NCBI RefSeq assembly: GCF_020622265.1
Contig: NZ_JACNMQ010000009.1
Coordinates: 1 to 64,000 of the forward strand
Origin: Halomonas sp. M20
Lineage (GTDB): Bacteria > Pseudomonadota > Gammaproteobacteria > Pseudomonadales > Halomonadaceae
Length of the DNA: 64,000 nucleotides
Direction: 5' to 3'
A program made the translations under genes and the position numbers. Positions within the stretch are counted from its first letter, which is position 1. Each line of letters opens with the position of its first letter. Of this stretch, positions 22,405 to 53,008 are shown in pieces. The notes below the pieces were generated by a model that made no database searches, was not told the DNA's origin, and worked only from the letters and a program-made list of their open reading frames with translations.

Positions 22405-24549
22405 CTAGTTACGAAAGCGATAGCCCAGCAATCGCATGGCATTTAGCGTCACCAGTACCGTCGCTCCGGTATCCGCCATCACGGCGATCCACATGCCGGT
22501 GATGCCCAGCGCCGTGGACACCAGAAAGATCGCTTTCAGGCCCAATGCCAGGACGACGTTGGTCTTGACGTTACGCAGGGTTGCCCGGGACAGGTCGATC
22601 AGCTCGGCAATGCCGCCGACGCGATTCTTGAGCAGGGCCGCATCCGCAGTTTCAAGCGCCACATCGGTACCGCCGCCCATGGCGATACCCACCTCCGCCG
22701 CGGCCAGCGCCGGCGCGTCGTTGATACCATCGCCGACCTTGCCCACCGGCCCGCGCCCCGCCCCTTGCCACTCGCGAATTCGCTGGGCCTTGTCTTCGGG
22801 CATCAGTTCGCCATGGGCCTCGATGCCCAAGGTGCCACCGATGGCCGCGGCGGTACGCGCATTGTCGCCGCTGAGCATTATTGCCTGCACACCGAGGCGC
22901 GACAGGGCGGCGAGGCCTTCCCGGGCGTCTTCGCGAGGCTCGTCGCGCACGGCGATCAAACCCAGCGCACGCTCGCCCTCGACCAGGACGGCGAGGCTCT
23001 TGCCCGCCTGCTCCAGCGCCGCGATGCGCTGCGATCGATCATCGGGCAACGTCGACAGTTCCTGCAGATGGCGAGGCGTGACCAGAGCCAGGTCGCGCCC
23101 CTCGACTCGCCCGGCGACACCACGACCGGCCAGGGCGCGCCCTTCACTCACCTTCGCAGATGAGAGCCCAAGCTGCTCGGTGTGCGCCAGAATCGCCGTG
23201 GCGATCGGATGACTGGAGCCGCGCTCCAGGGCCGCCGCCAACCTCAGAATATCGTTCTCACCCTGTTCGCTCGTCCAGCTTTCCACGTCGGTGACCTTGG
23301 GGGTGCCGGCGGTGAGCGTACCGGTCTTGTCCAGCGCCACCAGACGCAGCTTGCCCAGCTGCTCGAGTACGGCACCGCCCTTGATCAGCAGCCCATGGCG
23401 TGCGCCGGTCGAGAGGCCGGCGGCGATTGCCGCGGGGGTCGAGATCACCAGGGCACAGGGGCAGGCGATCAACAGCAGGGCCAAGGCGCGGTAGATCGAT
23501 TCCGACCAGGGCATCGCCGAGACCAGCGGCGGCACTACCGCCATCAGCAGGGCCAGGCCCACCACCGCCGGCATATAGTAGTAGGCGAAGCGGTCGATGA
23601 AACGGGCCACCGGCGCCTTGGCGGCCTGGGCTTCCTCCACCAGCCGGATGACCCGGGCGATGGTGTTGTCCTCGGCGCTACGGGTGACCTCCACCTCCAG
23701 GGCGGCATCGAGATTCACCGTGCCGGCGAAGACGTCATCGCCGGGCGCGCGGGATCGCGGCACGGACTCGCCATTCACCGGCGACTCATCCAGGTCGGAC
23801 TCCCCCGCCAGGATGCGGCCATCGCAGGACACGCGATCTCCCGGGCGTATCAGCACCCGTTGCCCGGGCTGCAGCGAAGCCGCCGACACTTCGCGAACCT
23901 CGCCATTCTCCATCAACCTCGCGGTGGACGGGGTCAGGTCCGACAGGGCCGAGATACTGCGTCGCGCCCGAGACGCGGCCACACCTTCCAGCAACTCGCC
24001 CACGGCGAACAGGAACACCACCATCGCCGCCTCGGCGGCGGCACCGATGGCCAGCGCCCCCAGGGCCGCGATGCTCATCAGCATCTCGATGGTGAAAGGA
24101 TTGCGTACCCTCAGCGCTCGCCAGGCCCCTTGCAGGATGGGCACGAGGCCCACCAGAGTGGCCGCCACGAAGGGCCAGTCACCTAAGGCGGGCCAGATCA
24201 TCCGAAGAGTGAAAGCAAGGACCAAAAGCCCTCCGCTGGCCAGTACCAAGCGCCCCTTGGCGGTACGCCACCAAGGCAAAGGGGCCGAAGCGACATTAGC
24301 CTCGTCTCCATCGCTTTTGACGGCATAGCCCAATCCGTCGATGGTCTGCTCGATCACCCGACGAGAGGGAGAAGCTCCCTGGCAAGGATGGACCTTCACC
24401 GAGCCGGTCATTGAACTTGCGGACACCTCGTCGATGCCTTCCAGCCGACCCAGCGCCGCTTCCACCTTGCGTTCGCAGCCACCGCAGTCCATGCCCTCGA
24501 CTCGCAGGGTCAGCATGGCTGAGGTATCTTGATACGTCGCGTCGCTCAT
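22405..24549 (-). CDS. zntA: Zn2+/Cd2+/Pb2+-exporting P-type ATPase
   Basis: 714-aa inner-membrane pump. N-terminal HMA domain with GMDCGGC (about residue 20), transmembrane CPC motif in IACPCALVISTP, phosphorylation site DKTGTLTAG, hinge GDGINDAP, and the last helix MADTGATVLVTLNAMRLL with the Asp that marks the Zn/Cd/Pb group. It pumps divalent soft metals into the periplasm. The divergent MerR-type gene cadR and the operator between them indicate metal-induced expression. Confidence 0.93.
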   Translation of the reverse strand: MSDATYQDTSAMLTLRVEGMDCGGCERKVEAALGRLEGIDEVSASSMTGSVKVHPCQGASPSRRVIEQTIDGLGYAVKSDGDEANVASAPLPWWRTAKGRLVLASGGLLVLAFTLRMIWPALGDWPFVAATLVGLVPILQGAWRALRVRNPFTIEMLMSIAALGALAIGAAAEAAMVVFLFAVGELLEGVAASRARRSISALSDLTPSTARLMENGEVREVSAASLQPGQRVLIRPGDRVSCDGRILAGESDLDESPVNGESVPRSRAPGDDVFAGTVNLDAALEVEVTRSAEDNTIARVIRLVEEAQAAKAPVARFIDRFAYYYMPAVVGLALLMAVVPPLVSAMPWSESIYRALALLLIACPCALVISTPAAIAAGLSTGARHGLLIKGGAVLEQLGKLRLVALDKTGTLTAGTPKVTDVESWTSEQGENDILRLAAALERGSSHPIATAILAHTEQLGLSSAKVSEGRALAGRGVAGRVEGRDLALVTPRHLQELSTLPDDRSQRIAALEQAGKSLAVLVEGERALGLIAVRDEPREDAREGLAALSRLGVQAIMLSGDNARTAAAIGGTLGIEAHGELMPEDKAQRIREWQGAGRGPVGKVGDGINDAPALAAAEVGIAMGGGTDVALETADAALLKNRVGGIAELIDLSRATLRNVKTNVVLALGLKAIFLVSTALGITGMWIAVMADTGATVLVTLNAMRLLGYRFRN

Positions 24550-24565
24550 AGCATCGCTCCCGGGA

Positions 24566-24594
24566 TTGAACTATCGTGAAGTCAATCCTAATCC
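24566..24594 (+). promoter_or_regulatory. Candidate cadR promoter
   Basis: Plus-strand TTGAAC (24566..24571), 17-bp spacer, TAATCC (24589..24594). It overlaps the zntA operator, so the regulator would also repress itself. The start site would be about 18 nt before the cadR ATG, leaving room for a weak AGG ribosome site. Confidence 0.45.
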
Positions 24595-24615
24595 CTGTAG
24601 CGACTATAGGTTCAA
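24585..24615 (-). promoter_or_regulatory. MerR-type zntA promoter/operator with 19-bp spacer
   Basis: Minus-strand -35 TTGAAC (24610..24615), 19-bp spacer, -10 TAGGAT (24585..24590). The dyad CTATAG-TCG-CTACAG lies in the overlong spacer, the hallmark of promoters untwisted by MerR-family activators such as ZntR and CadR. It ends 3 nt before the cadR ATG. Confidence 0.88.
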
Positions 24616-24618
24616 GCT

Positions 24619-25098
24619 ATGTCCGGTGATGCGACACACCACACCACCACTAGCCTTTCGATCGGTATTGGCGACTTAGCGCGACACTCTGGCTGCAAGC
24701 CCGAGACGGTGCGCTATTACGAGCGTATCGGGCTGTTGCCCGCCGCGACGCGCAGCGAAGGAGGACAGCGCCGTTATACCGAGCAGGCTATCCGACGATT
24801 GACATTCATCCGCCACGCCCGGGATTTCGGCTTTTCTATCGAGGCCGTACGCGAGCTGTTGACGATGGCGGATCACCCGGAGATGCCCTGCGACGAGGTC
24901 GATGCCGTCGCCAAGCACCATCTGGCAGAGGTGGAGTCTCGGCTGCAGCGCCTCGAAGCACTGCGTGATGAACTAGAGCGCATGGTGACCCAATGCGCGG
25001 GCGGGCGAGTCGAAAGCTGTCATATCATCGAGGTGCTCAGCGATCATCGCCTCTGTCAGCAGCTAGGAAAGCACGGCGGCAATGATGCGCTGAGATAG
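24619..25098 (+). CDS. cadR: MerR-family Cd/Pb/Zn-responsive regulator
   Basis: 159 aa. Winged helix GIGDLARHSGCKPETVRYYERIGLLP, a long dimer helix, and metal-binding Cys residues in PCDEVD and QCAGGRVESCH, a pattern of the CadR/PbrR/ZntR group. An unusual 12-residue N-terminal extension (MSGDATHHTTTS) precedes the fold, but no later start exists in frame. Its ATG abuts the zntA operator. Gene symbol is by family; Cd versus Zn preference is not decided by sequence. Confidence 0.85.
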   Translation: MSGDATHHTTTSLSIGIGDLARHSGCKPETVRYYERIGLLPAATRSEGGQRRYTEQAIRRLTFIRHARDFGFSIEAVRELLTMADHPEMPCDEVDAVAKHHLAEVESRLQRLEALRDELERMVTQCAGGRVESCHIIEVLSDHRLCQQLGKHGGNDALR

Positions 25099-25175: not shown

Positions 25176-26588
25176 CTAACCCGCAAAGCGAACGGCCCCC
25201 ATCAGCGCCAGCCCGCCTTTCGCGCCCAGGCTCGCCGCGACAAGCAATACCGCGCTGGCCAGCAGCGCCAACCAAGACCAGCTACCGAGCACGTGCACCT
25301 CGCCTTCCAGGGGCTTGAACATGGTGACCGCGATCACACGCAGGTAGTAAAACAGCGACAGCACGGTGTTGATGGCGGCGACCACCGCCAGCCAGGTATA
25401 GCCACCGGCGATGGTCACCTTGAACAGCATGAACTTGCCGAAGAACCCCACCAGCGGCGGGATGCCGACCAGCGACAGCAGCGCCAGGATCAACACCGCC
25501 GTGACCAATGGCTGGGTGCGCCCCAGGCCATGGTAGTCCGCCAGCGCCGTGCGCCCACGCAGATGGGTCACCACGGCGAAGGCGGCGAGATTGGCGAAAA
25601 GATAGGCCGCTAGGAAGGCCAGCAGCGCACCCAGCGCCTGGGGCTCGACGTCGATCACCACCACCGCCATCAGCGCATAGCCGGATTGCGAGACCGAGGA
25701 CCAGCCGAGCAGGCGCCGCACATCGGTCTGCTTTAGCGCTGCCAGGTTGCCCAGAGTCATGGTCACCACGGCGATCAGGGCGACGATGACCGGCCAGACC
25801 TGCGATTCCGGCAGCAGTGACACGAACCGTGCCAGGGCCACCGCGGCACCGACCTTGGGTGCCACGGTGAGTAGGGCCGCAACCGGTACCGGAGCGCCCT
25901 GGGCGACATCCGGCATCCAGGCATGGCCGGGAAAGGCCGCCAGCTTGAAGGTCAATCCCAGCACGATGCAGGCCACCGCCACGCTCAGCGCCAGCGGCGC
26001 CGCATCCGGCGCTGTCGCCAGCACCTGGGCCGTACGGGCGTAATCCGTATCGCCCACTAAACCGAACAGCAACACCACGCCGATCACCAGCAGGGAATTG
26101 GTCAAGGCGCCGATCAGAAAGTACTTCATCGCCGCTTCCAGTGCCGGTTTGAAACCGCGATGATAGGCCACCAGCGGGTAGCTGGCCGTGGAGGAGAGCA
26201 GGATGCCCACCACCAGTTCCATGCTGTCGTTGGCCGAGGCCATCATGATCACCCCGAGCAGGGTGAACAGGCACAGGGCGTAGTACTCGCCGTGCCGGCG
26301 GTCGCTGCGCATCCAGTCCGGCGATAGCAGGACGGCGACCGCACCGACCAATAGCACCAGCAGCTTGGTAGCCACCGCCGCGGTATCCAGCGCCCAGACC
26401 CCGGAAAAGGTCAGCGCCGGTGGCTCACGCCACTGCATCAGACTGAAACCCGCCGCGAGTGCCAATGTGATGAGCGCTAGCCCGCCGGCCCAGGCCTGAC
26501 GCTCCTGAGGCGCGAAGGAGGCGAACAGCACGATGACCACCGCGCCGACGAGCAGCGCGATTTCCGGGGCCAGGTCACCGATGGGCAT
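25176..26588 (-). CDS. nuoN: NuoN-like antiporter subunit of orphan NDH-1-type complex
   Basis: 470-aa membrane subunit with about 14 helices. The family segment ALEAAMKYFLIGAL and the broken-helix region FKLAAFPGHAWMPDVAQGAP are intact, as are the transport Lys residues in FKLAAFP and APKVGAA. The usual helix-5 Glu (GLEL in common NuoN) reads GILL here, so that protonatable site may be lost. Start MPIGDL overlaps the nuoM stop by 1 nt (TGATG). Last gene of the cluster; convergent with cadR. Confidence 0.85.
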   Translation of the reverse strand: MPIGDLAPEIALLVGAVVIVLFASFAPQERQAWAGGLALITLALAAGFSLMQWREPPALTFSGVWALDTAAVATKLLVLLVGAVAVLLSPDWMRSDRRHGEYYALCLFTLLGVIMMASANDSMELVVGILLSSTASYPLVAYHRGFKPALEAAMKYFLIGALTNSLLVIGVVLLFGLVGDTDYARTAQVLATAPDAAPLALSVAVACIVLGLTFKLAAFPGHAWMPDVAQGAPVPVAALLTVAPKVGAAVALARFVSLLPESQVWPVIVALIAVVTMTLGNLAALKQTDVRRLLGWSSVSQSGYALMAVVVIDVEPQALGALLAFLAAYLFANLAAFAVVTHLRGRTALADYHGLGRTQPLVTAVLILALLSLVGIPPLVGFFGKFMLFKVTIAGGYTWLAVVAAINTVLSLFYYLRVIAVTMFKPLEGEVHVLGSWSWLALLASAVLLVAASLGAKGGLALMGAVRFAG

Positions 26589-28075
26589 CAGCGACCTCCC
26601 ACCAGCAACGCGGATGAGGCGTCGATCAGCGTCAGCAGAAACTGCGGGGCCACACCGATCACCAGAATGCCCAGCGACAGTACCCCCAGCACGCCCCACT
26701 CAGCCCACTTCAGATCACCAAACCCGCCCAGGTGCGAGGGCAGACGGCCGAAGAACAGCCGTCGCAGCAGGCCCAGGAACAGCGCCGCGGTGATCAGGAT
26801 GCCCAGCACGCCGAGTACCGCCAACCAGGGGTAGACGGCGAAAGTGCCGGCAAAGACTTGGAACTCGGCGACGAAGCCCGCGAGCCCCGGCATGCCGAGA
26901 CTTGCAAAGGCCGCCAGCACCGTGAAACCGGTCAGCAGCGGCGCCCGGTGGGCCAGACCGCCATAATGATCGAGTTCATAGTCGCCGGTACGCTGCCAGA
27001 AGGAGCCGCAGATCAAGAACAGCGCCCCGGTGATCAGGCCGTGGGCGACCATCTCCACCGTCGCCCCGGTCAGGGCCAACTGGCGGGCGGCCTGATTGTC
27101 GGCAAAAATCGCCGACGCCACGGCGATGCCCAACACCGTGTAGCCCATGTGATTGATCGAGGTGTAGGCGATACGGCGCTTGAGGTTACCCTGCCCCAGC
27201 GCCACCAGGGCACCGTAGAGGATGGCAACCAGCGCGACGATGCCGACAACCAGCGAATACTTGGCGAAGGTTTCCTGCATCATCGCAAACGGCAGGCGAA
27301 TCATGCCGTAGGTGCCCATCTTGAGCAGCACCCCGGCGAGGATCGCCGAGGCCGGCCCCGGCGCATCGACGTGGGCCTGGGGCAGCCAGGTATGCAGCGG
27401 CACCAGGGGCGTCTTGATGGCAAAGCCCAGCATCAACGCCAGGAACACCAGTCCGGCGTAGAGCCCGGTGCCGGCCAGGGGCTGGCGTTCGATCAGCACG
27501 CGCATATCGAAGCTGTGCGGTTCAATCGACAGATACAGGCCGATGATCGCCAGCAACAATAACAGTGAGCCGGCGAAGGTATAGAGGAAGAACTTGAGCG
27601 CCGAGACCTGTGGCGTGCCATGCCCCCAGCGGCCGATGAGGAAGAACATGCCCACCAGGGTCAGATCGAAGAACACATAGAACAGCAGCAGATCCAGCAC
27701 CAGGAACACCCCCAGCGACATCGCCTGCAGGAAAAGCATCCAGGCATAGTACTGGCGTGGCTGGCCCAAGGTATCCACCGGGTAGGCGATGGCGGCAACG
27801 AAGATCAGGGCGCTCATGGTCGCCACCGCCAGGGCGATGCCGTCGACGCCGACCCGGTAGGCCAGCCCGATGCTCGGCACCCAGCGTAGCTCCTCGACAT
27901 GCTGGAAAAGCGGCCCCGCCGGATCGAAGCCGACCCAGGCCACCACCAGCGCCAGCAGCGACAGTGCGGCCACTGCCGCCGCCCATAGTCGTGCTCGTCC
28001 CTCGCTCCAGCGCGGGAAAGCAGCAAGCGCGACGGCGCCCAGCAGGGGAACAATCCAGGCGACGGTGAGAATCAC
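26588..28075 (-). CDS. nuoM: NuoM-like antiporter subunit
   Basis: 495 aa, about 14 helices. The motif FAIKTPLVPLHTWLPQAH and the following APGPASAILAGVLLKMGTYG are conserved. The helix-5 acidic residue is Asp (FFDLTLVGMFF) in place of the usual Glu. I start at a GTG (28075) overlapping the nuoL TGA by 4 nt, with AGGAG 7 nt upstream; a much longer open frame covers nuoL sequence and is not used. Confidence 0.87.
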   Translation of the reverse strand: MILTVAWIVPLLGAVALAAFPRWSEGRARLWAAAVAALSLLALVVAWVGFDPAGPLFQHVEELRWVPSIGLAYRVGVDGIALAVATMSALIFVAAIAYPVDTLGQPRQYYAWMLFLQAMSLGVFLVLDLLLFYVFFDLTLVGMFFLIGRWGHGTPQVSALKFFLYTFAGSLLLLLAIIGLYLSIEPHSFDMRVLIERQPLAGTGLYAGLVFLALMLGFAIKTPLVPLHTWLPQAHVDAPGPASAILAGVLLKMGTYGMIRLPFAMMQETFAKYSLVVGIVALVAILYGALVALGQGNLKRRIAYTSINHMGYTVLGIAVASAIFADNQAARQLALTGATVEMVAHGLITGALFLICGSFWQRTGDYELDHYGGLAHRAPLLTGFTVLAAFASLGMPGLAGFVAEFQVFAGTFAVYPWLAVLGVLGILITAALFLGLLRRLFFGRLPSHLGGFGDLKWAEWGVLGVLSLGILVIGVAPQFLLTLIDASSALLVGGR

Positions 28076-29940
28076 AACAAGGCTCCTATGACCAGGATGG
28101 CAAGAATGACGGCAAGGCCCAGGCTGATGCCGGTGTAATAATGATGCGTCTGGCCACTCTGGGCCTGGCGTGCCCAGTGGCCGCCCCATTCACTCAAGCG
28201 GGTCACCACGCCGGGCACGCCCTCGGAGAAGGCTTCGCCCTGCTGGGCGTTGCGTCGAGCAAGCCACCGGGCGAAGCGCGCCGTGCCGCGCAGCCCGGCA
28301 TCCACGACCCGGTCGTCGAAGCGGGCCAGGGAGTGGCCGAAGATCACGGTTCCCCGGGCGATCGTCTGGATTACCGTCGGCAGGCCGAACCAGCTGGCCG
28401 CGCGCTCCTGCCAAGTGCTCGATCGACGCTGGCGGCGTGTCATGACGAATCCCACGGCGATGCCCAGCACCACCAGGATGAGCGAGACGATCAGCTCCCA
28501 GAGCTTGCCTTGGGGCAGACGCTGGGGCCAAGCCTCGGCCAGCCAGGCCTGCACCTCGGGCCACCAGACCAGCGACAGCAACAGCGTGACGATAGCCAGC
28601 AGCCACAGCGCCCCGCTTTCAGCCCGGGACGGTCGCGGGCCCTGGGGCAACCTTGAGCGCTCCCGAGGCAGCGGGCGACCGTAGGCCAGCAACTGAAAGC
28701 GCGTGGCATACAGCGCACTCAAGCCGCCGGCGAGCGCCACCAGCAGCGCCAGCCAGACAGCCTGTTGCCCTGCCGCCGCCGCGATCTGCTCCTTGCTCCA
28801 GGCAGCGCCGAACGGAATCATGCCCGCCAGGGCCAAACTCAGCACGCCGGCAGCCAGGGCCACACCCGGCAGCCTTCGACCCAGACGCATGTCATGCAGC
28901 TGGTAACTGCCGATCTGGCGCTCAGCGAGCCCCGCGGACAGGAACAAGCCCGCCTTCAAGAAGGCATGGGCGACGAAGTGCAGCAGGGCCACGCCGGGAA
29001 AACCCGCTCCCACCGCGACCCACATCAAGCCGTACTGAGCCGACGTCGAGGCCGCCAGCAGCTTCTTGGCGTGATTCTGGAACATCCCGACCACCCCACC
29101 GATCAGGGCGGTGGCAAGCCCCAGGCTGATGACCAGTGGCGCGAACCAGTCGACGGCGGAGAGCGTCGGTTGCAGGCGCGCCAACAGGTAGATGCCTGCC
29201 GCCACCATGGTCGCCGAATGCAGCAGCGCCGACACCGGCACCGGACCCGCCATGGCGGCGAACAGCCAGGAAGAGAACGGCACCTGGGCCGACTTGGCCG
29301 CCGCCGCCAGCAGGATGCCGGCCACCGCGATGCTCAATAGCCCGCCGTCCAGGGTCGCCAGGTCGGCGTAGCCGAAGCCGCCGCTGCCGGCGAACACCGC
29401 CGCCGCAGCAATGTACAGGCCGAGATCGCCAAAGCGCGTGACCAGAAAGGCCTGGGCCGCCTCCTTGGGCACCTCCTTTTGTCCCCACTTGTGAGAAATC
29501 AGCGCCCAGGAGCAGGCACCAACCAGCTCCCAGGCGATCAGCAGCGTCAGAAAGTCATTGGCCAACACCAACATTTGCATGGCACCGACGAAGGCCAGCA
29601 GCAATCCCAGCAGACGCGCTCCCTGGCGATCACGACGACGATAGCCGGTACGCGGGGCCAGTTCGTGGTAGCCGGCGTAGACGACGATCAGCAGCGCAAC
29701 GAGCGGTATCGTCAGGGCAAAGACGCTACCGGCGGTGGAGAGCTTGAGGGTCAAGGCCAGCGTCTCGCTCCAGGCAACGCTGCCCTGCCAGCCACTCGTG
29801 ATCGCCAGCCCGGCCAGCACCAAGGTGGCCAGCACGACAAGCGACGCCGCAAGCGTTAGCCCGAAACGGCCGAGGCGTCGGCCACCCAGATAAAGCAGGG
29901 GCGCGCCCAGCAGCGGCAACAGCACGAGGGTCCATAGCAT
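28072..29940 (-). CDS. nuoL: NuoL-like antiporter subunit
   Basis: 622 aa, normal NuoL length. Helix-5 Glu is present (LIAWELVGACSW), as are the Lys in AAAKSAQVPFSSW and the His in ALLHSATMVAAG. The C-terminal part has an amphipathic stretch then a final helix, matching the lateral helix and anchor of NuoL. ATG at 29940 overlaps the nuoK stop by 1 nt. It should form the distal ion channel of the membrane arm. Confidence 0.9.
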   Translation of the reverse strand: MLWTLVLLPLLGAPLLYLGGRRLGRFGLTLAASLVVLATLVLAGLAITSGWQGSVAWSETLALTLKLSTAGSVFALTIPLVALLIVVYAGYHELAPRTGYRRRDRQGARLLGLLLAFVGAMQMLVLANDFLTLLIAWELVGACSWALISHKWGQKEVPKEAAQAFLVTRFGDLGLYIAAAAVFAGSGGFGYADLATLDGGLLSIAVAGILLAAAAKSAQVPFSSWLFAAMAGPVPVSALLHSATMVAAGIYLLARLQPTLSAVDWFAPLVISLGLATALIGGVVGMFQNHAKKLLAASTSAQYGLMWVAVGAGFPGVALLHFVAHAFLKAGLFLSAGLAERQIGSYQLHDMRLGRRLPGVALAAGVLSLALAGMIPFGAAWSKEQIAAAAGQQAVWLALLVALAGGLSALYATRFQLLAYGRPLPRERSRLPQGPRPSRAESGALWLLAIVTLLLSLVWWPEVQAWLAEAWPQRLPQGKLWELIVSLILVVLGIAVGFVMTRRQRRSSTWQERAASWFGLPTVIQTIARGTVIFGHSLARFDDRVVDAGLRGTARFARWLARRNAQQGEAFSEGVPGVVTRLSEWGGHWARQAQSGQTHHYYTGISLGLAVILAILVIGALL

Positions 29941-30245
29941 CAGTGCTTCAACTCCGTGATGCCCTCGGTCACGTCCGCCTGGTTGGTACGGAACACCGCC
30001 ACCACCAGGGCAAAGCCCATGGCCATCTCGATGGCCATCACCGCCATGACCACGATGGTCAGCAATTGGCCTTCCGGCGCACCGGCGCCACTCAGTGCCC
30101 AGAAAGCCACGGCGGCCAGCATGACGCCATTCAGGATCAGCTCGAGGCCCATCATCAGCATCACGAAGGATTGCTGGGACAGCGCGCCGTAGATGCCGAT
30201 GCCGATCAGCGCGGCGGCGAGCAGCAGTAGCGTCATCAATGTCAT
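29940..30245 (-). CDS. nuoK: NuoK-like subunit
   Basis: 101-aa, three-helix protein with the conserved helix-2 Glu in MLMGLELILNGVML and a second acidic residue in AIEMAMGFAL, as in NuoK/MrpC. AAGGAGG lies 6 nt before the ATG. Unlike every other junction in this cluster, it is separated from the preceding gene (nuoJ) by 214 nt holding a structured element. Confidence 0.9.
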   Translation of the reverse strand: MTLMTLLLLAAALIGIGIYGALSQQSFVMLMMGLELILNGVMLAAVAFWALSGAGAPEGQLLTIVVMAVMAIEMAMGFALVVAVFRTNQADVTEGITELKH

Positions 30246-30278
30246 TTTCGCCTCCTTGCGTTAGCCGGGTAGTCTCGC

Positions 30279-30416
30279 GGGTAGGCCGTCGCGAAGGCGC
30301 TGTGAACCCCTCCCTGGGCGCTACTTTTGCCATCTGACCGCCATGGATGGCGGAAATGCCGGAATTGAATGGAGCCTTTTCCGGCCATGGCAAAAGACCT
30401 TCGCTTTGGCCTACCC
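30279..30416. other. Nested inverted-repeat element in the nuoJ-nuoK gap
   Basis: Outer arms GGGTAGGCC (30279..30287) and GCGAAGG (30291..30297) pair with CCTTCGC (30398..30404) and GGCCTACCC (30408..30416) across symmetric 3-nt internal loops. Inside, TTTTGCCAT (30325..30333) pairs with ATGGCAAAA (30387..30395). That enclosed space holds two side hairpins: CCGCCAT/ATGGCGG (30338..30353) and GCCGGAA/TTCCGGC (30358..30385). The whole folds as a multi-branched structure of about 138 nt. It could be an intercistronic RNA element, or an inserted REP/MITE-like palindrome. No protein is encoded. Confidence 0.6.
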
Positions 30417-30459
30417 CCGATCCAATCCCTATCCACCTCTGAGAATTTGTAACGGACGC

Positions 30460-31074
30460 CTAGTGGCAGTGATGATGACCACCGCCCTCATCCTCTTCTT
30501 CAGGCATACCTGCCGGGTCGCCGCCCGGCACCAACCCAGGCGGCATCGAGCCCTCCTCGGCAGCGCCATAGCGCCCGTTATGGCTCGACAGCACCACCAC
30601 GCCAATCATGGTGGTCAGCAGCACGATGCCCGCGGACTCGAAGATCAGCATCGAATCACCCAGCAGTTCGTTACCCAGGGATCTGACCGGGTCGATGTCC
30701 GCCGACAGCGGATTGTCGGGAAACTCCGCCAGCAGCGCCACGGCAGCCAGCACCAGGAAGCTCACCGCGCCGGCGGCGATGGAAAACTTGTGCTGGTGCA
30801 CCATCATCATCGGATTGAGCCCCGCCGGGTTCATCATGAACATGACCATGAAGATCGCCATGACCATCATCTCCACGGCCATCATGAAGAACATCGCCAC
30901 GCCCAGGTACTCCGCCGCCAGCAGGATCATGATCACGCCCACGGCGATGAACGACACCAGCAGGAAAAAGGAGGCGCGCACCATGGAATCCGTGGCGAAC
31001 ACCCGCCAGCCGGAGACCACCGCCAGGATGGCCAGCAACACGAAAAACACATCGACGATCAGCGGATAATCCAT
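30460..31074 (-). CDS. nuoJ: NuoJ-like subunit with His-rich tail
   Basis: 204 aa with about five helices. The motif AAEYLGVAMFFMMAVEMMVMAIFMVMFM replaces the usual NuoJ helix 3, is strikingly Met-rich and retains the acidic residues. The C-terminus ends GGGHHHCH after an acidic loop, a possible metal-binding tail not typical of NuoJ. Start ATG at 31074 overlaps the nuoH stop by 1 nt (TAATG). The Met and His enrichment stands out next to a copper locus. Confidence 0.85.
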   Translation of the reverse strand: MDYPLIVDVFFVLLAILAVVSGWRVFATDSMVRASFFLLVSFIAVGVIMILLAAEYLGVAMFFMMAVEMMVMAIFMVMFMMNPAGLNPMMMVHQHKFSIAAGAVSFLVLAAVALLAEFPDNPLSADIDPVRSLGNELLGDSMLIFESAGIVLLTTMIGVVVLSSHNGRYGAAEEGSMPPGLVPGGDPAGMPEEEDEGGGHHHCH

Positions 31075-32000
31075 TACCACAAGGCCTCCACGCCCGCCCA
31101 GATCAGATCGACAAAGGAGAGCGGCAGAAACACCACCCACATCAGGGTAACGCAGCGCTCCGGCTGTACGCGTGGCATCAGCCGACCGATCAGCAGCAGC
31201 ACGGCAAGCACCGCCAGCATCTTGAGCAGCATCCATACCGGCCCGGGCAACCAGGGGCCCAGCCAGCCGCCGAGAAAGGCGCTCGCCGCCGCGCCACTGA
31301 AAGCCACCAGCATCGCCGCCCGGGCCAGATTCCACACCAGCCGGGGCGGACCGGAAACCGCAGATGCCGTGCCCCCGGCCAGATCCCGGGAGTCCGCCAG
31401 ATTGAGCGGCCCCCAGAAGGTCATGCCCAGCCCGACAATCAGGAATAGCGGCAGCCCCAGAGGCTGGCGAATCACGTTCCACAGCTCTTCCTGGGAAGCC
31501 ACCACCTGACTGAATTGCAGCGACTCGGCGGGCAGCGCCACGCCGATCAGCACGAACATGCTGATCAGGATGTAGGAAAGCCCCAGAGCCACGTAGCGAT
31601 AGGCGCCGATCAGCGCCAGCAACGTATTGGCGGACCAGCCGTGCAGGAAGATCACCACCGTGGCCAGGGCCTCGACGCTGCCCCACAGCACCACGCTGGT
31701 GACCAGATCCGTGGCGATCAGCGTCGGCGAGAACGGCACCACCGCCAGCCCAATCGCGGCCAGGGCCAGATAGAGTGCCGGGGCCAGGCGCCAGGCCCGC
31801 CAGTCCGGCGCCTCGGTGGCGTTGGCCTGCTGATTGAGCAGCCATGCGCCCTGGGCCAGGGGTGCCATCCACGCACCCGCGCCGCTTGGCCTGCCCAAGG
31901 CGCCTGCGATCACCTCATCGATGACCGCCACCAGATAGGCACCGACCACGAGGACTACCGTCACCAGGAGCACCGGCAGTATGAGTTCGTTAAAAATCAT
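31074..32000 (-). CDS. nuoH: Divergent NuoH-like subunit
   Basis: 308 aa, about eight helices, shorter than usual NuoH. The position (between the NuoB/D-like gene and nuoJ) and motifs such as LIGAYRYVALGLSYILISMF, NVIRQPLG and GPLNLADSRDLAGG identify it. The quinone-chamber loop normally rich in Glu (EAESELV) reads ADSRDLAGG, so quinone binding and proton coupling are probably changed. ATG overlaps the upstream stop by 4 nt. Confidence 0.75.
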   Translation of the reverse strand: MIFNELILPVLLVTVVLVVGAYLVAVIDEVIAGALGRPSGAGAWMAPLAQGAWLLNQQANATEAPDWRAWRLAPALYLALAAIGLAVVPFSPTLIATDLVTSVVLWGSVEALATVVIFLHGWSANTLLALIGAYRYVALGLSYILISMFVLIGVALPAESLQFSQVVASQEELWNVIRQPLGLPLFLIVGLGMTFWGPLNLADSRDLAGGTASAVSGPPRLVWNLARAAMLVAFSGAAASAFLGGWLGPWLPGPVWMLLKMLAVLAVLLLIGRLMPRVQPERCVTLMWVVFLPLSFVDLIWAGVEALW

Positions 32001-33310
32001 GCCCGACGCTCCTCGGCAATGGCCTGGGCGACCGGCGCACCGCTCGCCTCCTCCAGCGACCAGGGCGACAGCGGCACCAGATCGAGGCTTGCCAGGGTGC
32101 TCAGCGCCTCGTCCCACTCCAGCCCCGGCAGCAGATCATCGAGCAGCGTGCTCTGATCTTCGGGCCACTGCCGGTGCCAGGTACCCCGTGGCGTCTCGAC
32201 ACCGTCGCTGTGCCGGGTATGGGTCGCGTCTTGTTCGGCCTGGGCGGCGAGTTGCAGCGACTGCTCGACTTCCGCCAAGGTCTGGCGCCAGCGTGCCCCC
32301 GTGTCACCTTGGCGCTGAGTGAGCGGGCGAAAGCCCAGTTGCCGGTAGCCCTCGTCCTCACTGCGCCAGTCCTCCTCGAGCCCCGCCGCCCGAGCCGCCA
32401 CCCCGCCGACTCGACGGGCCGTTTCTTCATCGAGCCGGCCCTGCCCTGTCGTCGTCAGCCCAAAGAAGCCGCTGCGTACCAACCGACGCCGAAGCGTCGC
32501 CACACGCTTCGGATTTGAATGAGATTCGAACGCCAGGCGTAGGGCCGTCAGTGCCAACGCCTCGAGGCCCGCCAGGCGCAGGGCGAAGTAAAGGTGCTTC
32601 AGGTGGTAGCGCGCCATAGCCCGCTCAAGCTCGGCGATGGGCACCGGGCCCTGCAGCGCCTGGAAGAACACGCTCTCCAGCGCAATGGGGTAAGGCGGGT
32701 CCCGAGTCGTCCAAGTCTGGATAAGATCGCCCTGTAAAGTGACTTCGACGCTCAGCCCCGGCGGCAGCATGGGCAGAAACGGCCCCAGGGTGACGGTGAG
32801 AGAGTCCAGGGTCAGGCCATCGCGAATGTCATCATGCATGTTCATGGCCATGGGCCGGCCATAGGGTACGCCGCCCATCATGCCCTCGCCGCCGTGGCCG
32901 TCATCGCCCAGTCCTTCCCAAGGATTGGGCGGCTCGTCTGGCAGTAGCCGCGGTGAGCTACCGCGCTTTCCACACATCAGCTCGTGATGCATCGCCTTCA
33001 GCGCTCCGGACAAGACGTCGGGGTCGTCGATGCGGGTGGCACTCGCGAGTTCATCCAGAGGCTGGCTGCGATACCACAGCGTGGCGAAGGGGGCGGGTAG
33101 CTGGTCGTGCACCCGACGCAGGGCACCGTACTGATCCGGCGGCACGCCCCCGGCTACCAGCAGAATGCTGGCATGGCGCGGCGAGTCGACCAGCTCGACC
33201 CCAGGTGTCAGGGCCAGGCGATAAAGCACTTCCTCGCCATGCATGCCCCGCACCGGAAACACCGGCACGCTGGCTCGCGCCGCCAGGCGTTGCAACCAGC
33301 TCACTGCCAC
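31997..33310 (-). CDS. NuoB/NuoD-like fusion protein without iron-sulfur cysteines
   Basis: 437 aa, soluble. The first 90 residues contain ILLVAGGVPPDQYGALRRVH followed by LPAPFATLWY, which resembles the NuoB core (DVLLVTGPVT...), and the middle LTLDSLTVTLGPFLPMLPPG plus ARYHLKHLYFALRLAGLEAL resembles the NuoD/hydrogenase-large-subunit front end. Only one Cys occurs, so the CC-x-C N2 site of NuoB is gone; NuoD quinone residues are not seen. A GTG start at 33310 has GAGGGGG 7 nt upstream (33304 is an alternative), overlapping nuoA. The C-terminal 150 residues are unrecognised. It probably caps the membrane arm. Confidence 0.6.
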   Translation of the reverse strand: MAVSWLQRLAARASVPVFPVRGMHGEEVLYRLALTPGVELVDSPRHASILLVAGGVPPDQYGALRRVHDQLPAPFATLWYRSQPLDELASATRIDDPDVLSGALKAMHHELMCGKRGSSPRLLPDEPPNPWEGLGDDGHGGEGMMGGVPYGRPMAMNMHDDIRDGLTLDSLTVTLGPFLPMLPPGLSVEVTLQGDLIQTWTTRDPPYPIALESVFFQALQGPVPIAELERAMARYHLKHLYFALRLAGLEALALTALRLAFESHSNPKRVATLRRRLVRSGFFGLTTTGQGRLDEETARRVGGVAARAAGLEEDWRSEDEGYRQLGFRPLTQRQGDTGARWRQTLAEVEQSLQLAAQAEQDATHTRHSDGVETPRGTWHRQWPEDQSTLLDDLLPGLEWDEALSTLASLDLVPLSPWSLEEASGAPVAQAIAEERRA

Positions 33311-33648
33311 TTGAACACCCCCTCGCGCCAACCGTAGACGATGCCCACGGAGAGGATGGCCAGGAACATGCCCATCTCCATCACCGCCTTCATGCCCTGC
33401 TCGACGAATACCACCGCCCAGGGGTACATGAACATCATCTCCATCTCAAAGGCGATGAGCAGTATCGTCATGGGGTAGTAGCGAGTGTGGTAACGGTTCC
33501 AGGCGTGGGTCTCGGGCAAGCCCCCGCCCAGAAAAGGTGCACGCTGGGGATAGGTCGGCATCGGTTGATGGCGCATCGGCAGCCACTGGATCAGTAGCCC
33601 CAGGCCGGCAGCGATCAGTACGATGAAAAAGAGTGTGAGCAGCTCCAT
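33301..33648 (-). CDS. nuoA: NuoA-like subunit
   Basis: 115 aa, three helices, with YPMTILLIAFEMEMMFMYPWAVVF matching the conserved NuoA segment that carries the acidic pair. GAGGG lies upstream of the ATG at 33648. First gene of the cluster nuoA-(B/D-like)-H-J-K-L-M-N. A copper-type direct-repeat box lies about 120-150 nt upstream. Confidence 0.88.
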   Translation of the reverse strand: MELLTLFFIVLIAAGLGLLIQWLPMRHQPMPTYPQRAPFLGGGLPETHAWNRYHTRYYPMTILLIAFEMEMMFMYPWAVVFVEQGMKAVMEMGMFLAILSVGIVYGWREGVFKWQ

Positions 33649-33863: not shown

Positions 33864-36800
33864 TCACCGCAGGGCGGCCTTCCGCCACAGGAAATATGCC
33901 GCCGGTAATACCAGCAGTGTCAGCAGCACCGCGCTTATCATGCCCCCGACCATGGGGGCGGCGATCCGGCTCATCACCTCGGAGCCGGTGCCCGAGCCAT
34001 ACATGATGGGCAGCAGGCCCACGATGATGGCGGCGGCGGTCATCATCACCGGACGCACCCGCAGCCCGGCGCCGTGCAGAACGGCATGGCGCAGTGTTTC
34101 CGCCCGCGGCTCCACATCATGGCTTTGACAGCGCTCCAGCATCTCGCGGTAGGCCTGATTCAGGTAGACCAGCATGATGACGCCGATCTCGACGGCCACC
34201 CCGGCCAGGGCGATGAAGCCGACCCCGACGGCCACGGAGAAATTGTAGCCCAGCAGGTACATCAGCAGGATGCTGCCCACCATCGCCAACGGCAAGGTGC
34301 CCATGATGATGGCCACCTCGGCCAGGCTTCTAAAGTTCATGTACAGCAATATGATGATGATGGCCAAGGTCAGGGGCACGACATAGGTCAGCTTGGCCTT
34401 GGCACGCTGCATGTACTCGTACTGGCCGGACCAGGTGACGGAGTAACCGGCAGGCAGGTCGAGCTCGTCACGCACCACTTCCTGGGCTTGCCGCACATAA
34501 CTGCCGATATCCACATCCGCGATGTCGACGAACGTCCAGCCATTGAGGCGTGCGTTCTCGCTCTTGATTCCGGGCGGTCCGTCCTCCACCACGACCTCCG
34601 CCACATCGCCCAGGGAAATGCGTTGGCCGTCCGGCGTGACGATCGGCAGCAGGGAGAGCTGCTCGGGGGAGCTGCGGTAATCCTGGGGATAGCGCAGGTT
34701 GACCGGATAACGCTCCAGCCCCTCCACCGTCTGGGTGACATTCATGCCGCCGATCGCGGTGGAGACGACCTGTTGTACATCGGCGATATTGAGCCCGTAT
34801 CGAGCAGCCTTCTCGCGATTGATATCCGCCTTGATGTAACGGCCGCCGGCGACCCGCTCCGAGTAGACCGAGGCGGTGCCTGGCACATCGGCGAGGATCG
34901 TCTCGAGCTGCTGGCCGATGCCCTGGATGGTCTTGAGGTCGGGCCCGGCGACCTTGATGCCCACCGGGGTCTTGATGCCGGTAGCCAGCATGTCGATGCG
35001 CGTCTTGATCGGCATCACCCAGGCGTTGGTGACTCCCGGGAACTTGACCAGGCTGTCCAGCTCCTGCTTGAGCTTCTCGGTCGTCATGCCTTCGCGCCAC
35101 TCATCCCGAGGCTTCAACTGGATGAAGGTCTCGATCATGGTAAGTGGCGCCGGGTCCGTGGCAGTTTCGGCGCGCCCGATCTTCCCGAACACGGTCTTCA
35201 CCTCCGGGACGGTATAGATCAGCTTGTCCGTCTGCTGCAGCAACTCCCGGGCCTTGCCGATGGAGATGCCCGGATAGGTGGTAGGCATGTACATCAGGTC
35301 GCCCTCATCCAGCGGCGGGATGAACTCGCTGCCGATCTGGGTCGCCGGCCAGAGCCCGACCACGGCGACGAACGCCGCGCCGGCCAGGGTCGACTTCGGG
35401 AACCGCAGGACCCCGCGCAATACCGGCATGTATATGGCGATCAACAGCCGATTGAGCGGGTTCTTGTGCTCCGGCAACACCTTGCCGCGGATGAAGTAGC
35501 CCATCAGCACCGGCACCAGGGTCACGGCCAGAGCCGCGGAGGCCGCCATTGCATAGGTCTTGGTGAAGGCCAGCGGCGAAAACATGCGGCCTTCCTGAGC
35601 CTCCAGGGTGAACACCGGCACGAAGCTGACGGTGATGATCAATAGGCTGAAGAACAGCGCCGGGCCCACTTCGCTGGCGGACTCCGCGACGATCTTCCAG
35701 CGGTTCTCCCGCGTCAGCGGCGTTCGCTCCATGTGCTTGTGCATGTTTTCGATCATCACGATGGCACCGTCGATCATCGCGCCGATGGCAATGGCGATGC
35801 CGCCGAGGGACATGATATTGGCGTTGATGCCTTGCAGGTGCATCACGATGAAAGCGGCCAGGATGCCCACGGGCAGGCTGACGATGGCCACCAGGGAAGA
35901 GCGGACATGGAACAGAAACACCACGCACACCAGGGCAACGACAATGAACTCTTCCAGCAGCTTGTACCAGAGATTCTCCACCGCGCTGTCGATCAGGCCG
36001 GAGCGGTCGTAGACAGGCACGATCTCGACCCCCTCGGGCAACCCTTGCTTGAGCTCCTCGAGCTTGGACTTGATCCCCTCGATGGTCTTTTGCGCATTCT
36101 CGCCGAAGCGCATGACGACGACGCCACCCACGGTTTCGCCCTCGCCGTTGAGCTCCGCCAGGCCGCGACGCATCTGCGGGCCAAGGCTGATGTCGGCCAC
36201 ATCCTTCAACAGCAGCGGGGTGCCGTTGGCATCCAGCCCCAAGGGGATACTGGCGAGATCCTCGACGCTCTGGATATAGCCGGTGGCGCGAATCATGTAC
36301 TCGGCCTCGGCCATTTCCACCACCGAGGCGCCGACTTCCTGGTTGCCTCGTTCGATCGCCAGTTGGATCTTCGACAGTGGGATCTCGAAGGCCCGTAGCT
36401 TTTCCGGGTCGACCTGCACCTGATACTGCTTGACCATGCCGCCGATGGCCGCGACTTCGGACACCCCCGGCACGGTTTGCAGCTCGTACTTGAGGAACCA
36501 GTCCTGGAGGCTGCGCAACTGGCTGATGTCGTGCTCACCGGTCTTGTCCACCAGAGCGTAGAGGTAGACCCAGCCCACGCCGGTGGCGTCCGGGCCGAGC
36601 TGCGGCCGGGCGTTGGAAGGCAGCGTCGGCGCCACCTGACTCAGGTATTCCAGCACGCGGCTACGCGCCCAGTAGGGGTCGGTCTCTTCGTCGAAGATCA
36701 CGTAGACGTAGGAGTCACCGAAGAACGAGTAGCCGCGTACCGTCACCGCACCCGGCACCGACAGCATGGCGGTAGTCAGGGGGTAGGTGACCTGGTCCTC

Positions 36801-36983
36801 CACCACCTGAGGTGCCTGGCCAGGGTAACTCGTCTTGACGATCACCTGGACGTCGGAGAGATCGGGAAGCGCATCGACCGGCGTGTTCTTCAATGAGAAC
36901 AGCCCGCCGCCGATCACGATGAAGGTGGCCAGCAACACGAAGAAGCGGTTGCTGACGGACCAGCGAATAATAGATTCAATCAT
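33864..36983 (-). CDS. cusA: Heavy-metal efflux RND pump (CusA/CzcA family)
   Basis: 1039-aa inner-membrane RND protein, 12 helices and two large periplasmic loops. TM4 carries GAMIDGAIVMIENMHKHME, the acidic relay motif of the heavy-metal group. The length and the motif PTTYPGISIGKA fit the monovalent (Cu+/Ag+) subgroup better than CzcA, though this is inference. Downstream of cusB (11-nt gap) and cusC on the same strand. Confidence 0.92.
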   Translation of the reverse strand: MIESIIRWSVSNRFFVLLATFIVIGGGLFSLKNTPVDALPDLSDVQVIVKTSYPGQAPQVVEDQVTYPLTTAMLSVPGAVTVRGYSFFGDSYVYVIFDEETDPYWARSRVLEYLSQVAPTLPSNARPQLGPDATGVGWVYLYALVDKTGEHDISQLRSLQDWFLKYELQTVPGVSEVAAIGGMVKQYQVQVDPEKLRAFEIPLSKIQLAIERGNQEVGASVVEMAEAEYMIRATGYIQSVEDLASIPLGLDANGTPLLLKDVADISLGPQMRRGLAELNGEGETVGGVVVMRFGENAQKTIEGIKSKLEELKQGLPEGVEIVPVYDRSGLIDSAVENLWYKLLEEFIVVALVCVVFLFHVRSSLVAIVSLPVGILAAFIVMHLQGINANIMSLGGIAIAIGAMIDGAIVMIENMHKHMERTPLTRENRWKIVAESASEVGPALFFSLLIITVSFVPVFTLEAQEGRMFSPLAFTKTYAMAASAALAVTLVPVLMGYFIRGKVLPEHKNPLNRLLIAIYMPVLRGVLRFPKSTLAGAAFVAVVGLWPATQIGSEFIPPLDEGDLMYMPTTYPGISIGKARELLQQTDKLIYTVPEVKTVFGKIGRAETATDPAPLTMIETFIQLKPRDEWREGMTTEKLKQELDSLVKFPGVTNAWVMPIKTRIDMLATGIKTPVGIKVAGPDLKTIQGIGQQLETILADVPGTASVYSERVAGGRYIKADINREKAARYGLNIADVQQVVSTAIGGMNVTQTVEGLERYPVNLRYPQDYRSSPEQLSLLPIVTPDGQRISLGDVAEVVVEDGPPGIKSENARLNGWTFVDIADVDIGSYVRQAQEVVRDELDLPAGYSVTWSGQYEYMQRAKAKLTYVVPLTLAIIIILLYMNFRSLAEVAIIMGTLPLAMVGSILLMYLLGYNFSVAVGVGFIALAGVAVEIGVIMLVYLNQAYREMLERCQSHDVEPRAETLRHAVLHGAGLRVRPVMMTAAAIIVGLLPIMYGSGTGSEVMSRIAAPMVGGMISAVLLTLLVLPAAYFLWRKAALR

Positions 36984-36994
36984 GATGCCTTTCC

Positions 36995-38281: not shown

Positions 38282-38314
38282 ACCGACCTCTTGAACCAAG
38301 AAAACAATAAGCGG

Positions 38315-39616: not shown

Positions 39617-39691
39617 GCGTATTGTTCCTGACATTACCTGCGTGGGATAAAGTATTGCCCTGTGAATCCATCCTTTATAAGTATTGGGCTT

Positions 39692-43488: not shown

Positions 43489-43539
43489 GGAATCCTCTCC
43501 GTCACTTTGTTGGACTGGTTGCAAAATGCATAAAGGGCC

Positions 43540-50439: not shown

Positions 50440-50554
50440 ATCCCAACTCCTTCTCCCTGGACTTGTTCTGAATAGTTAATCAATTGCAAAACTTCTTCTT
50501 GTGATAAACGCTCTCTTTTGAGTGGCGTTTTATAACCTTTTCACGACCATGGTC

Positions 50555-50588
50555 GGGCGACCCATCAAACGCTGGATCGCCCTTTTTT
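50555..50588 (+). terminator. Orphan terminator-like hairpin between CusF and copA2
   Basis: GGGCGA (50555..50560) / TCGCCC (50577..50582) with an extra CC/GG pair inside the loop, then six T residues on the plus strand, the strand with no gene. CGACCATGGTCG palindrome (50544..50555) abuts it. Sense unclear; it may mark an antisense transcript or just an intercistronic fold. Confidence 0.4.
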
Positions 50589-50607
50589 ATTGCTTGATGA
50601 CGTCTCG

Positions 50608-50964
50608 TTACTGTTGAGAAATCTCGGTGATGGCGATGTCGCTGCCAGACTTCCTGACTTCGAAGCGAACCTCGTCGCCCAGGGAAAGCCCCTCCATCGA
50701 GGCACTTTCCGCCACGTTGAATGGCATGGTCATTCCCGGCCAGCCCAGGGCCTCGATCGGGCCGTGAGAGAGGGTAATCTGCTGCGCCGCAGTATCTATA
50801 GCCTTGACGGTACCCTCACCCTGCGCCGTTTGGGTCTCCGCGGATTGCTGCATTTTCGAGCCATGCTTCTGGCCGTCATGGTTCGTATCGGCGCTGGCAG
50901 GCAGTGCAATGAAAGCAACCGACAGTGCTGCGGTAGTCAACATGTTGCGAATAGCGTTAGTCAT
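50608..50964 (-). CDS. cusF: CusF-like periplasmic copper-binding protein
   Basis: 118 aa. Signal peptide ending LPASADT, short Met/His linker, then a CusF beta-barrel (GTVKAIDTAAQQITLSHGPIEALGWPGMTMPF) with the Trp and the Met pair of the Cu+ site. Probably shuttles copper to CusB or CopA. About 170 nt before copA2 on the same strand. Confidence 0.9.
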   Translation of the reverse strand: MTNAIRNMLTTAALSVAFIALPASADTNHDGQKHGSKMQQSAETQTAQGEGTVKAIDTAAQQITLSHGPIEALGWPGMTMPFNVAESASMEGLSLGDEVRFEVRKSGSDIAITEISQQ

Positions 50965-51008
50965 CTCGTTTTCCTTGTTTCAGTAGTGTCGTCGTACAAC
51001 GGGTTCAC

Positions 51009-52986: not shown

Positions 52987-53008
52987 AAGCTATCTCACTG
53001 ACACTGAC

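What the first reader, a model, noticed from the sequence alone, without database searches (positions are those of the whole stretch)
25176..33648. Orphan complex-I membrane arm with a cysteine-poor NuoB/D-like cap
Eight tightly overlapping genes encode NuoA, H, J, K, L, M and N plus one 437-aa protein in the NuoB/C/D position. There is no NuoE, F, G or I here. The NuoB/D-like protein has one Cys, so it cannot hold the N2 cluster. NuoH has lost its Glu-rich quinone loop, and NuoJ ends GGGHHHCH with a Met-rich helix. NuoL keeps its ion-channel Glu/Lys/His set, while NuoM and NuoN have changed helix-5 acidic residues. This looks like an ion-moving machine whose electron or ligand input is new, not a decayed NADH dehydrogenase, because every frame is intact.
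Basis: partly seen in the sequence, partly recalled or inferred. Interest (0 to 1): 0.86.

Follow-up and report, generated by a model that had tools for sequence, protein, structure and literature searches.

The report
Copper-linked, electron-free complex I relative
A set of eight bacterial genes builds a relative of the respiratory enzyme complex I that has lost the parts for carrying electrons but gained parts that look made for binding copper, so it is probably an ion-driven copper-handling machine that travels with copper-resistance genes.

Summary
Eight intact genes (window 33648 to 25176, minus strand) encode NuoA, a 437-aa NuoB/NuoD-like cap, and NuoH, J, K, L, M, N. The genome also has a complete ordinary nuo operon, so this is an extra machine. 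The same set recurs in Halomonas relatives, on alphaproteobacterial plasmids and on a Rubrobacter plasmid, in two types. Type I (the window) has an invariant Met-rich cap linker and a His-rich NuoJ tail. Type II has heavy-metal-binding domains (HMBD) in the same linker; the window's own copper ATPase carries this motif too. Proton-path residues of NuoL, M and K are kept, while N2 cysteines, the quinone histidine and the NuoH quinone gate are gone. Eighteen methionines around the E-channel acids are nearly invariant in the family and rare or absent in ordinary complex I, and NuoJ gains a buried Glu. Copper-type genes lie nearby in 24 of 38 loci checked (0 of 8 ordinary nuo loci). Best reading: a non-redox, proton-coupled Cu(I)-handling machine, probably exporting Cu(I). 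Copper binding and transport are inferred. One Marinobacter paper noted a copper-linked nuo cassette and proposed copper redox; the metal-binding cap and methionine ladder were not found in the papers searched.

The parts
33301..33648 (-). NuoA-like subunit (115 aa); family-specific Met69, Met71, Met74 around the acids E68/E70, and His54
   Evidence: Pfam PF00507 E 1.3e-22; Met columns 29 of 29 family, 0 to 6% of 31 canonical
31997..33310 (-). Cap protein, 437 aa, GTG start: NuoB-like N-terminal part (about 37-82, no Cys cluster), Met-rich linker GEGMMGGVPYGRPMAM (about 141-156), NuoD-like part (about 166-416) without the quinone His
31074..32000 (-). NuoH-like subunit (308 aa) lacking the TMH1-TMH2 segment with E36/R37; keeps R135, K260, R277 (E. 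coli R148, K274, R291)
   Evidence: PF00146 E 2.2e-39; residue tables
30460..31074 (-). NuoJ-like subunit (204 aa): MMAVEMMVMAIFMVMFMM with new Glu68, new Glu136, His-rich tail GGGHHHCH
   Evidence: PF00499 E 1.3e-19; 11 new Met and 2 new Glu
29940..30245 (-). NuoK-like subunit (101 aa): E35 and E73 kept, new Met29, Met67, Met70, Met74
   Evidence: PF00420 E 1.7e-15
28072..29940 (-). NuoL-like antiporter subunit (622 aa), all checked proton-path residues kept
   Evidence: PF00361 E 1.3e-43
26588..28075 (-). NuoM-like antiporter subunit (495 aa, GTG start), proton-path residues kept, TMH5 acid is Asp
   Evidence: PF00361 E 1e-62, TIGR01972 above cut-off
25176..26588 (-). NuoN-like antiporter subunit (470 aa), Lys residues kept, TMH5 Glu replaced by Leu
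   Evidence: PF00361 E 6.9e-56
33864..39634 (-). Neighbour, same strand, 215 nt upstream of nuoA: heavy-metal RND efflux genes, CusA/CzcA-type (33864-36983), CusB-like adaptor (36995-38299), TolC-family protein (38315-39634)
   Evidence: NCBIfam TIGR00914 1269 bits, above cut-off; RND_mfp TIGR01730 above cut-off, PRK09783 CusB 247 bits, below cut-off; TIGR01844 55 bits, below cut-off
41203..43494 (-). Neighbour: copper-translocating P-type ATPase with one HMBD motif ([20 protein letters not shown]) near its N terminus
   Evidence: NCBIfam TIGR01511 593 bits, above cut-off; motif
48643..56555 (-). Neighbour: rest of the copper island, two copper-resistance multicopper oxidases (48643-50439, 54618-56555) and a sensor kinase (51009-52352)
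   Evidence: TIGR01480 745 and 803 bits, above cut-off; kinase models below cut-offs
22405..25098 (.). Neighbour: heavy-metal P-type ATPase, ZntA-like (22405-24549, -), and MerR-family metal regulator (24619-25098, +)
   Evidence: TIGR01525 593 bits, above cut-off, PRK11033 781 bits, below; CueR/ZntR/CadR models below cut-offs

Best explanation
A non-redox member of the complex I superfamily dedicated to Cu(I) (possibly Ag(I) too). Shown by sequence: the electron path (N2 cysteines, quinone histidine, NuoH quinone gate) is lost, the antiporter-type residues of NuoL/M/K are kept, metal-binding sequences replace the redox cap, and the membrane core around the E-channel has gained a family-wide set of methionines and a glutamate. 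Inferred: cytosolic Cu(I) is captured by the cap (HMBD repeats in type II, Met-rich linker and NuoJ His tail in type I), passes through the former quinone cavity and E-channel along the methionine ladder of NuoJ/K/A, and leaves to the periplasm, where CusCBA and multicopper oxidases deal with it. Inward proton flow through NuoL/M/N would drive this, in the way that cations take the equivalent path in Mrp antiporters. Direction (export) is the least certain step.
For: Metal cap: Pfam HMBD in two type II caps scanned, 3 copies E 1e-42 and 7 copies E 4e-89; motif counted in 14 of 15 type II caps, the 15th (Rubrobacter) is annotated as HMBD protein, 0 of 15 type I caps. Type I caps share GMMGGxPYGRxM in all 11 aligned. 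The NuoJ tail has 4 or more His in 14 of 14 type I, 0 to 3 in 15 type II. Methionine ladder: 18 of 53 family-specific invariant residues in NuoA/J/K are Met, against 4 of 102 in NuoH/L/M/N, Fisher P 1e-6, the L/M/N part resting on only two canonical sequences; at these 18 positions Met is found in 0 to 10% of 31 canonical sequences. NuoJ TMH3 Met and Glu cluster on one helix face (P 0.013, helix span set by me). NuoJ Glu68 is three residues from the position of Mrp E706, and the E-channel coincides with the Mrp cation exit path (PMC7419157, section 8 and passages). Proton residues kept. Copper-type genes in the fetched flanks of 24 of 38 family loci besides the window, 0 of 8 ordinary nuo loci. 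In Marinobacter a similar cassette was grouped and expressed with copper genes in electrode biofilms (PMC8233155, passages).
Against: No copper binding, transport or phenotype has been measured. NuoN E133, by recalled numbering the equivalent of the Mrp coupling glutamate of MrpD, is lost in all 28 copies, so Mrp-type coupling cannot be copied unchanged. NuoH, where Cu(I) would enter, has no new invariant Met, His or Cys. Clustering on one face was not significant for NuoK (P 0.11) or NuoA (P 0.52). Marinobacter expression was measured against electrode potential; the passages seen show no copper challenge, and only one of the seven genes passed the paper's fold-change cut-off. The complex was not modelled.
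Confidence: 0.5

Rival explanations
1. Copper-redox-driven ion pump: copper at the cap gives electrons to quinone (or another acceptor) and this drives proton pumping, as suggested for the Marinobacter cassette.
For: Suggested in print for a copper-operon nuoADHJKL cassette (PMC8233155, passages). Pumping residues kept. HMBD cysteines could hold copper near the old N2 site.
Against: The NuoD GPQHP quinone loop reads GPFLP, GPFFP, GPHFP or similar in the 16 aligned caps, never with His in the canonical place; the NuoH segment with E36/R37 is missing in 29 of 29; no electron-carrier subunit is encoded in the operon. Met in the E-channel is better explained by ion passage than by electron entry at the cap (inference).
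Confidence: 0.15
2. Copper-gated ion channel or antiporter: copper binding to the cap opens H+ or Na+ flux through NuoL/M/N to adjust pH, membrane potential or pmf for CusCBA, without copper crossing the membrane.
For: Antiporter residues kept. Metal-binding sequence is on the cap, cytosolic by homology to NuoB/NuoD.
Against: Does not by itself explain 18 family-specific methionines in NuoA/J/K.
Confidence: 0.22
3. An alternative complex I that borrows NuoEFGI and B/CD from the chromosomal nuo operon under copper stress.
For: A complete nuo operon is in the same genome.
Against: The operon has its own cap in the B/D place. It travels on plasmids as the same eight-gene unit (nine regions read). 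Quinone-site residues are lost.
Confidence: 0.05
4. Relic of a complex I duplication without function.
For: Broken copies exist: Martelella plasmid (ISL3 transposase after a short cap ORF) and Vreelandella sulfidaeris plasmid (many frames broken).
Against: Ka/Ks 0.027-0.234 in the eight genes against four relatives; family-wide new residues; spread to an actinomycete plasmid.
Confidence: 0.02

Closest known systems
Respiratory complex I (NDH-1, Nuo)
   Same: NuoA, H, J, K, L, M, N homologues in the same gene order; NuoB- and NuoD-like cap; pumping residues of L, M, K kept
   Different: No E, F, G, I in the operon; no N2 cysteines; quinone His and NuoH gate segment lost; Met around the E-channel acids; metal-binding cap
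Mrp multisubunit Na+(K+)/H+ antiporter
   Same: Non-redox use of antiporter-like subunits; an acid in TMH3 of the NuoJ-like subunit; cation path coincides with the E-channel (PMC7419157)
   Different: Has NuoA, H and a B/D cap, no MrpB/E/F/G among the eight proteins; NuoN TMH5 Glu lost; soft-metal ligands in place of His/Ser
Marinobacter atlanticus nuoADHJKL cassette in the copper operon (Eddie et al. 2021, PMC8233155)
   Same: Complex I-like genes flanked by copper-homeostasis genes and apparently co-regulated with them (passages read)
HMBD-bearing copper P-type ATPases
   Same: The HMBD repeat of type II caps; the window's own copper ATPase carries the motif
   Different: Only this small domain is shared
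Membrane-bound [NiFe] hydrogenases and formate hydrogenlyase
   Different: One Cys in the cap, so no two CxxC pairs for a NiFe centre

Membership tests
Respiratory complex I | Seven membrane subunits A, H, J, K, L, M, N | tested here: met
   Pfam matches above gathering score for all seven
Respiratory complex I | NuoB with N2 cysteines | tested here: not met
   One Cys in the 437-aa cap; the hhalign NuoB match covers template residues 73-118, between the conserved Cys54/55 and Cys119
Respiratory complex I | Electron-input subunits E, F, G, I | tested here: not met
   E. coli NuoE/F/G/I match no window ORF at 1e-5; all four found at the other nuo locus
Respiratory complex I | Quinone-site His loop in NuoD (GPQHPxxH) and NuoH quinone gate | tested here: not met
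   GPQHP aligned to GPFLP, no canonical His in 16 caps; NuoH E36/R37 gapped in 29 of 29. The role of these residues is recalled
Mrp antiporter | MrpA-G set including MrpB, E, F, G | tested here: not met
   None of the eight proteins hits an Mrp B/E/F/G model in Pfam; NCBIfam lists for L, M, N were cut at 25 rows. Neighbours outside the eight genes were not scanned for this
Mrp antiporter | Acid in TMH3 of the NuoJ-like part and Glu in TMH5 of the MrpD-like subunit | tested here: inconclusive
   New NuoJ Glu68 lies at E. coli A62, three residues from Y59 (= Mrp E706); NuoN E133 is L/V. Profile alignment to the genome's own Mrp-like proteins failed
Energy-converting [NiFe] hydrogenase | Two CxxC pairs in the large subunit | tested here: not met
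   Cap has one Cys
Copper-handling system | Measured copper binding or copper phenotype | not testable with these tools
   Only sequence, neighbourhood and published co-expression of a similar cassette
This eight-gene family | A-BD-H-J-K-L-M-N order, metal-binding cap linker, NuoJ MMA[VT]EM-type signature | tested here: met
   Window and 28 other loci, one cut at a contig end before nuoN; a loose form of the signature was found in 65 fetched loci, several being the same place fetched twice

The most novel reading that the evidence does not exclude
A complex I descendant in which copper has taken the place of electrons and quinone: Cu(I) moving along a methionine ladder through the E-channel is coupled to protons moving through NuoL, M and N, making it the first known proton-motive copper pump of the complex I/Mrp superfamily, spread on plasmids across phyla.
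Probability: 0.4. Interest if true: 0.95.

Novelty: new variant of a known kind. Interest (0 to 1): 0.87.

Why it matters
How complex I couples events at the quinone site to distant proton movement is a long-standing open question. A natural relative that keeps the proton path but seems to have swapped the redox input for a metal would let that coupling be studied without redox chemistry, with a substrate (copper) that can be added, chelated and counted. It would also add a kind of copper-resistance determinant that is found on plasmids and is annotated as NADH dehydrogenase subunits plus a hypothetical or metal-binding protein, and it would link Mrp-like and complex I-like mechanisms.

Tried and rejected

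Profile alignment of family NuoJ/K to the genome's own Mrp-like proteins gave nothing; the Mrp comparison therefore rests on the structure paper.

The other 162 of 171 matching genomes in the phylum scan have weaker hits (best E 6.5e-17), nearly all listed rows covering only the NuoD part; they look like ordinary NuoD or hydrogenase large subunits, but the list was cut and they were not each checked. Two hits at about 1e-21 in the class of G592 have Cys-bearing NuoB-like and NuoD-like proteins and a ferredoxin-like protein and were dropped.

Copper neighbourhood counts use reference proteins taken from four family loci and the window, so they are partly circular. Flanks differ in length and some end at contig ends. 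L024 was counted although its frames are broken; L042 and L044 are nearly identical; L028 and L029 are one genome; L027 and L031 were not in that count. No promoter or terminator signal that would decide whether cusCBA and the operon are transcribed together was found.

The tree has only two ordinary sequences as outgroup, so it shows the two types and the place of Rubrobacter but does not test where the family branches within the superfamily.

Literature: ten searches; the only relevant prior report found was PMC8233155. Term searches inside PMC8478169, PMC9237845 and PMC12361115 showed no description of it in the passages returned.
Full report
What is there. On the minus strand between 33648 and 25176 lie nuoA, a 437-codon gene, nuoH, J, K, L, M and N, all open. 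Neighbours overlap by 1 to 10 nt, except for a 214-nt gap between J and K. Seven proteins pass Pfam cut-offs for their Nuo families. The same genome has a complete ordinary nuo operon on contig 13, with B, CD, E, F, G, H, I, J, K, L, M and N in L050 and A just beyond it, and two further antiporter-type genes on contig 7 that look like mrp (label recalled). So the window operon is an additional machine and not the cell's only complex I.

Relatives and two types. Scans found the same set in Halomonas, Modicisalibacter and Litchfieldella genomes, and cap matches on plasmids of Halomonas, Vreelandella, Roseivivax, Acuticoccus and Martelella. With a type II cap as query, matches over 70% or more of the cap appeared on plasmids of Paracoccus, Sulfitobacter, Roseovarius, Nitratireductor, Thioclava and Rubrobacter, an actinomycete. 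Nine regions read show the eight genes; two show broken copies. Counting the searched centre itself, the cap at E below 1e-30 was present in 12 of 14 genomes of the window's genus, 9 of 293 of its order and 9 of 398 of its phylum; around G592, chosen because it was positive, 1 of 289 (itself). 14 of 274 genomes of the window's class matched at 1e-6. A tree of seven concatenated subunits from 29 loci, with E. coli and the genome's own nuo as only outgroup, puts the family on one long branch and splits it into type I (14 loci with the window, support 0.99) and type II (15 loci, 0.92); the Rubrobacter copy sits inside type II, so genes have probably crossed phyla.

Metal-binding additions. In type II caps the linker between the NuoB-like and NuoD-like parts contains HMBD (Pfam PF19335, heavy metal binding domain): three stretches at E 1e-42 in one cap and seven at E 4e-89 in another. 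A motif count found two to seven copies in 14 of 15 type II caps; the script did not pick up the Rubrobacter cap, which its record annotates as HMBD protein. The copper P-type ATPase in the window carries the same motif, and copper ATPases on many plasmids match that part of the query. Type I caps have no HMBD motif (0 of 15) but share GMMGG-x-PYGR-x-M in 11 of 11 aligned, and all 14 type I NuoJ proteins end in a tail with 4 to 32 His, against 0 to 3 in 15 type II. So the two types carry metal-binding sequence in different forms.

Membrane core. Against E. coli numbering in 14 type I and 15 type II copies (L034 ends at a contig end and lacks N and part of M): NuoL E144, D178, K229, H254, H338, K342, K399 kept in all; NuoM K234, K265, H322 kept in all, TMH5 acid E or D, H348 and E407 kept in 28 with one missing; NuoN K158, K217, K247, K395 kept in 28 of 28, but E133 is L or V in all 28; NuoK E36 and E72 and NuoA E81 kept in all, NuoA D79 as D or E. 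NuoH lacks the segment with E36/R37 in all 29; E157 and D63 are each kept in one copy. NuoJ Y59 is Met in all. Of 53 family-specific invariant residues in A/J/K, 18 are Met; in NuoH it is 0 of 13 and in L/M/N 4 of 89 (the last against only two canonical sequences), Fisher P 1e-6. In NuoJ TMH3 the Met and Glu fall on one helix face (P 0.013); NuoK (P 0.11) and NuoA (P 0.52) do not show this significantly.

Setting. The window operon sits 215 nt downstream of a CusCBA-type heavy-metal efflux set on the same strand, in an island with a copper P-type ATPase and two copper-resistance multicopper oxidases. With labelled copper-type proteins as probes, 24 of 38 family loci besides the window had at least one within the fetched flanks, against 0 of 8 ordinary nuo loci (7 of the same genus and the genome's own). 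The probes came partly from these loci.

Mechanism. In the Mrp antiporter, cations bind between MrpA E706, MrpC His residues and MrpD E137, E706 corresponds to Y59 of NuoJ, and the E-channel of complex I coincides with the cation exit path (PMC7419157, passages). The family puts methionines and a new Glu in just this region. Thioether ligands are usual intramembrane ligands of Cu(I) (recalled: CTR1, CusA). The simplest reading is a Cu(I)/H+ coupled transporter with the cap as cytosolic metal collector. Shown by sequence: loss of redox parts, retention of proton parts, metal-binding additions, copper setting. Inferred: that copper is bound, that it crosses the membrane, that protons drive it, and that the direction is outward. 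The lost NuoN TMH5 glutamate is unexplained and speaks against a plain copy of the Mrp coupling point.

Prior knowledge. Eddie et al. 2021 (PMC8233155; passages read) describe a nuoADHJKL cassette flanked by copper-homeostasis genes in Marinobacter atlanticus, with all seven genes higher on electrodes at 160 mV (one passing their fold-change cut-off), and suggest copper redox as a possible energy source. They report no nuoM/N. I could not compare its sequence. No description of the metal-binding cap, the Met ladder or the family was found in ten searches of the open-access library. The HMBD annotation of type II caps is already in the records seen, without function.

Verdict. The finding is real and more interesting than first stated. 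It fails defining features of respiratory complex I, Mrp and [NiFe] hydrogenases; it works most likely like a cation antiporter with a metal as cargo. I rate it a new variant of a known superfamily, with a fair chance that it is a new kind of metal pump.

Noticed in passing
L023:20108-22380; also L020, L024, L178, L190: Ergothioneine genes egtB and egtD lie downstream of the operon in several Halomonas-type copies, suggesting a thiol-based partner in copper stress.
   Followed up: no
L027:11681-14248: On the Martelella mediterranea plasmid the operon stops after a short cap ORF at an ISL3-family transposase; nuoA and that ORF remain beside copper and arsenic genes.
   Followed up: partly
plasmid records CP070277.1 and NZ_CP066787.1: A record named Dysgonomonadaceae bacterium zrk40 has the same length (166,348) and cap match as a Martelella lutilitoris plasmid, so one name may be wrong.
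   Followed up: no
L024:11600-20000: The Vreelandella sulfidaeris plasmid copy is split into many frames, as are its neighbouring copper genes; this may be sequencing error or decay.
   Followed up: no
L028 and L029 (one genome, G171); G668: Some genomes carry two or more copies of the cap or operon.
   Followed up: no
window about 26222-26129 (NuoN TMH5): The TMH5 glutamate of NuoN is Leu or Val in all 28 family NuoN compared although the lysines checked are kept; no explanation found.
   Followed up: partly
L044, L046, L047 upstream of nuoA; L026 and L027: A DUF6629 family gene lies near nuoA in three alphaproteobacterial plasmid copies, and an ion-channel gene in two others.
   Followed up: no
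window 48643-50439 and 54618-56555: Two different copper-resistance multicopper oxidases in one island.
   Followed up: no
L030:598-1065 and 4970-5566: Two Met-rich ORFs (27 Met in 156 aa and 25 in 199 aa) near a type I copy without labelled copper genes.
   Followed up: no
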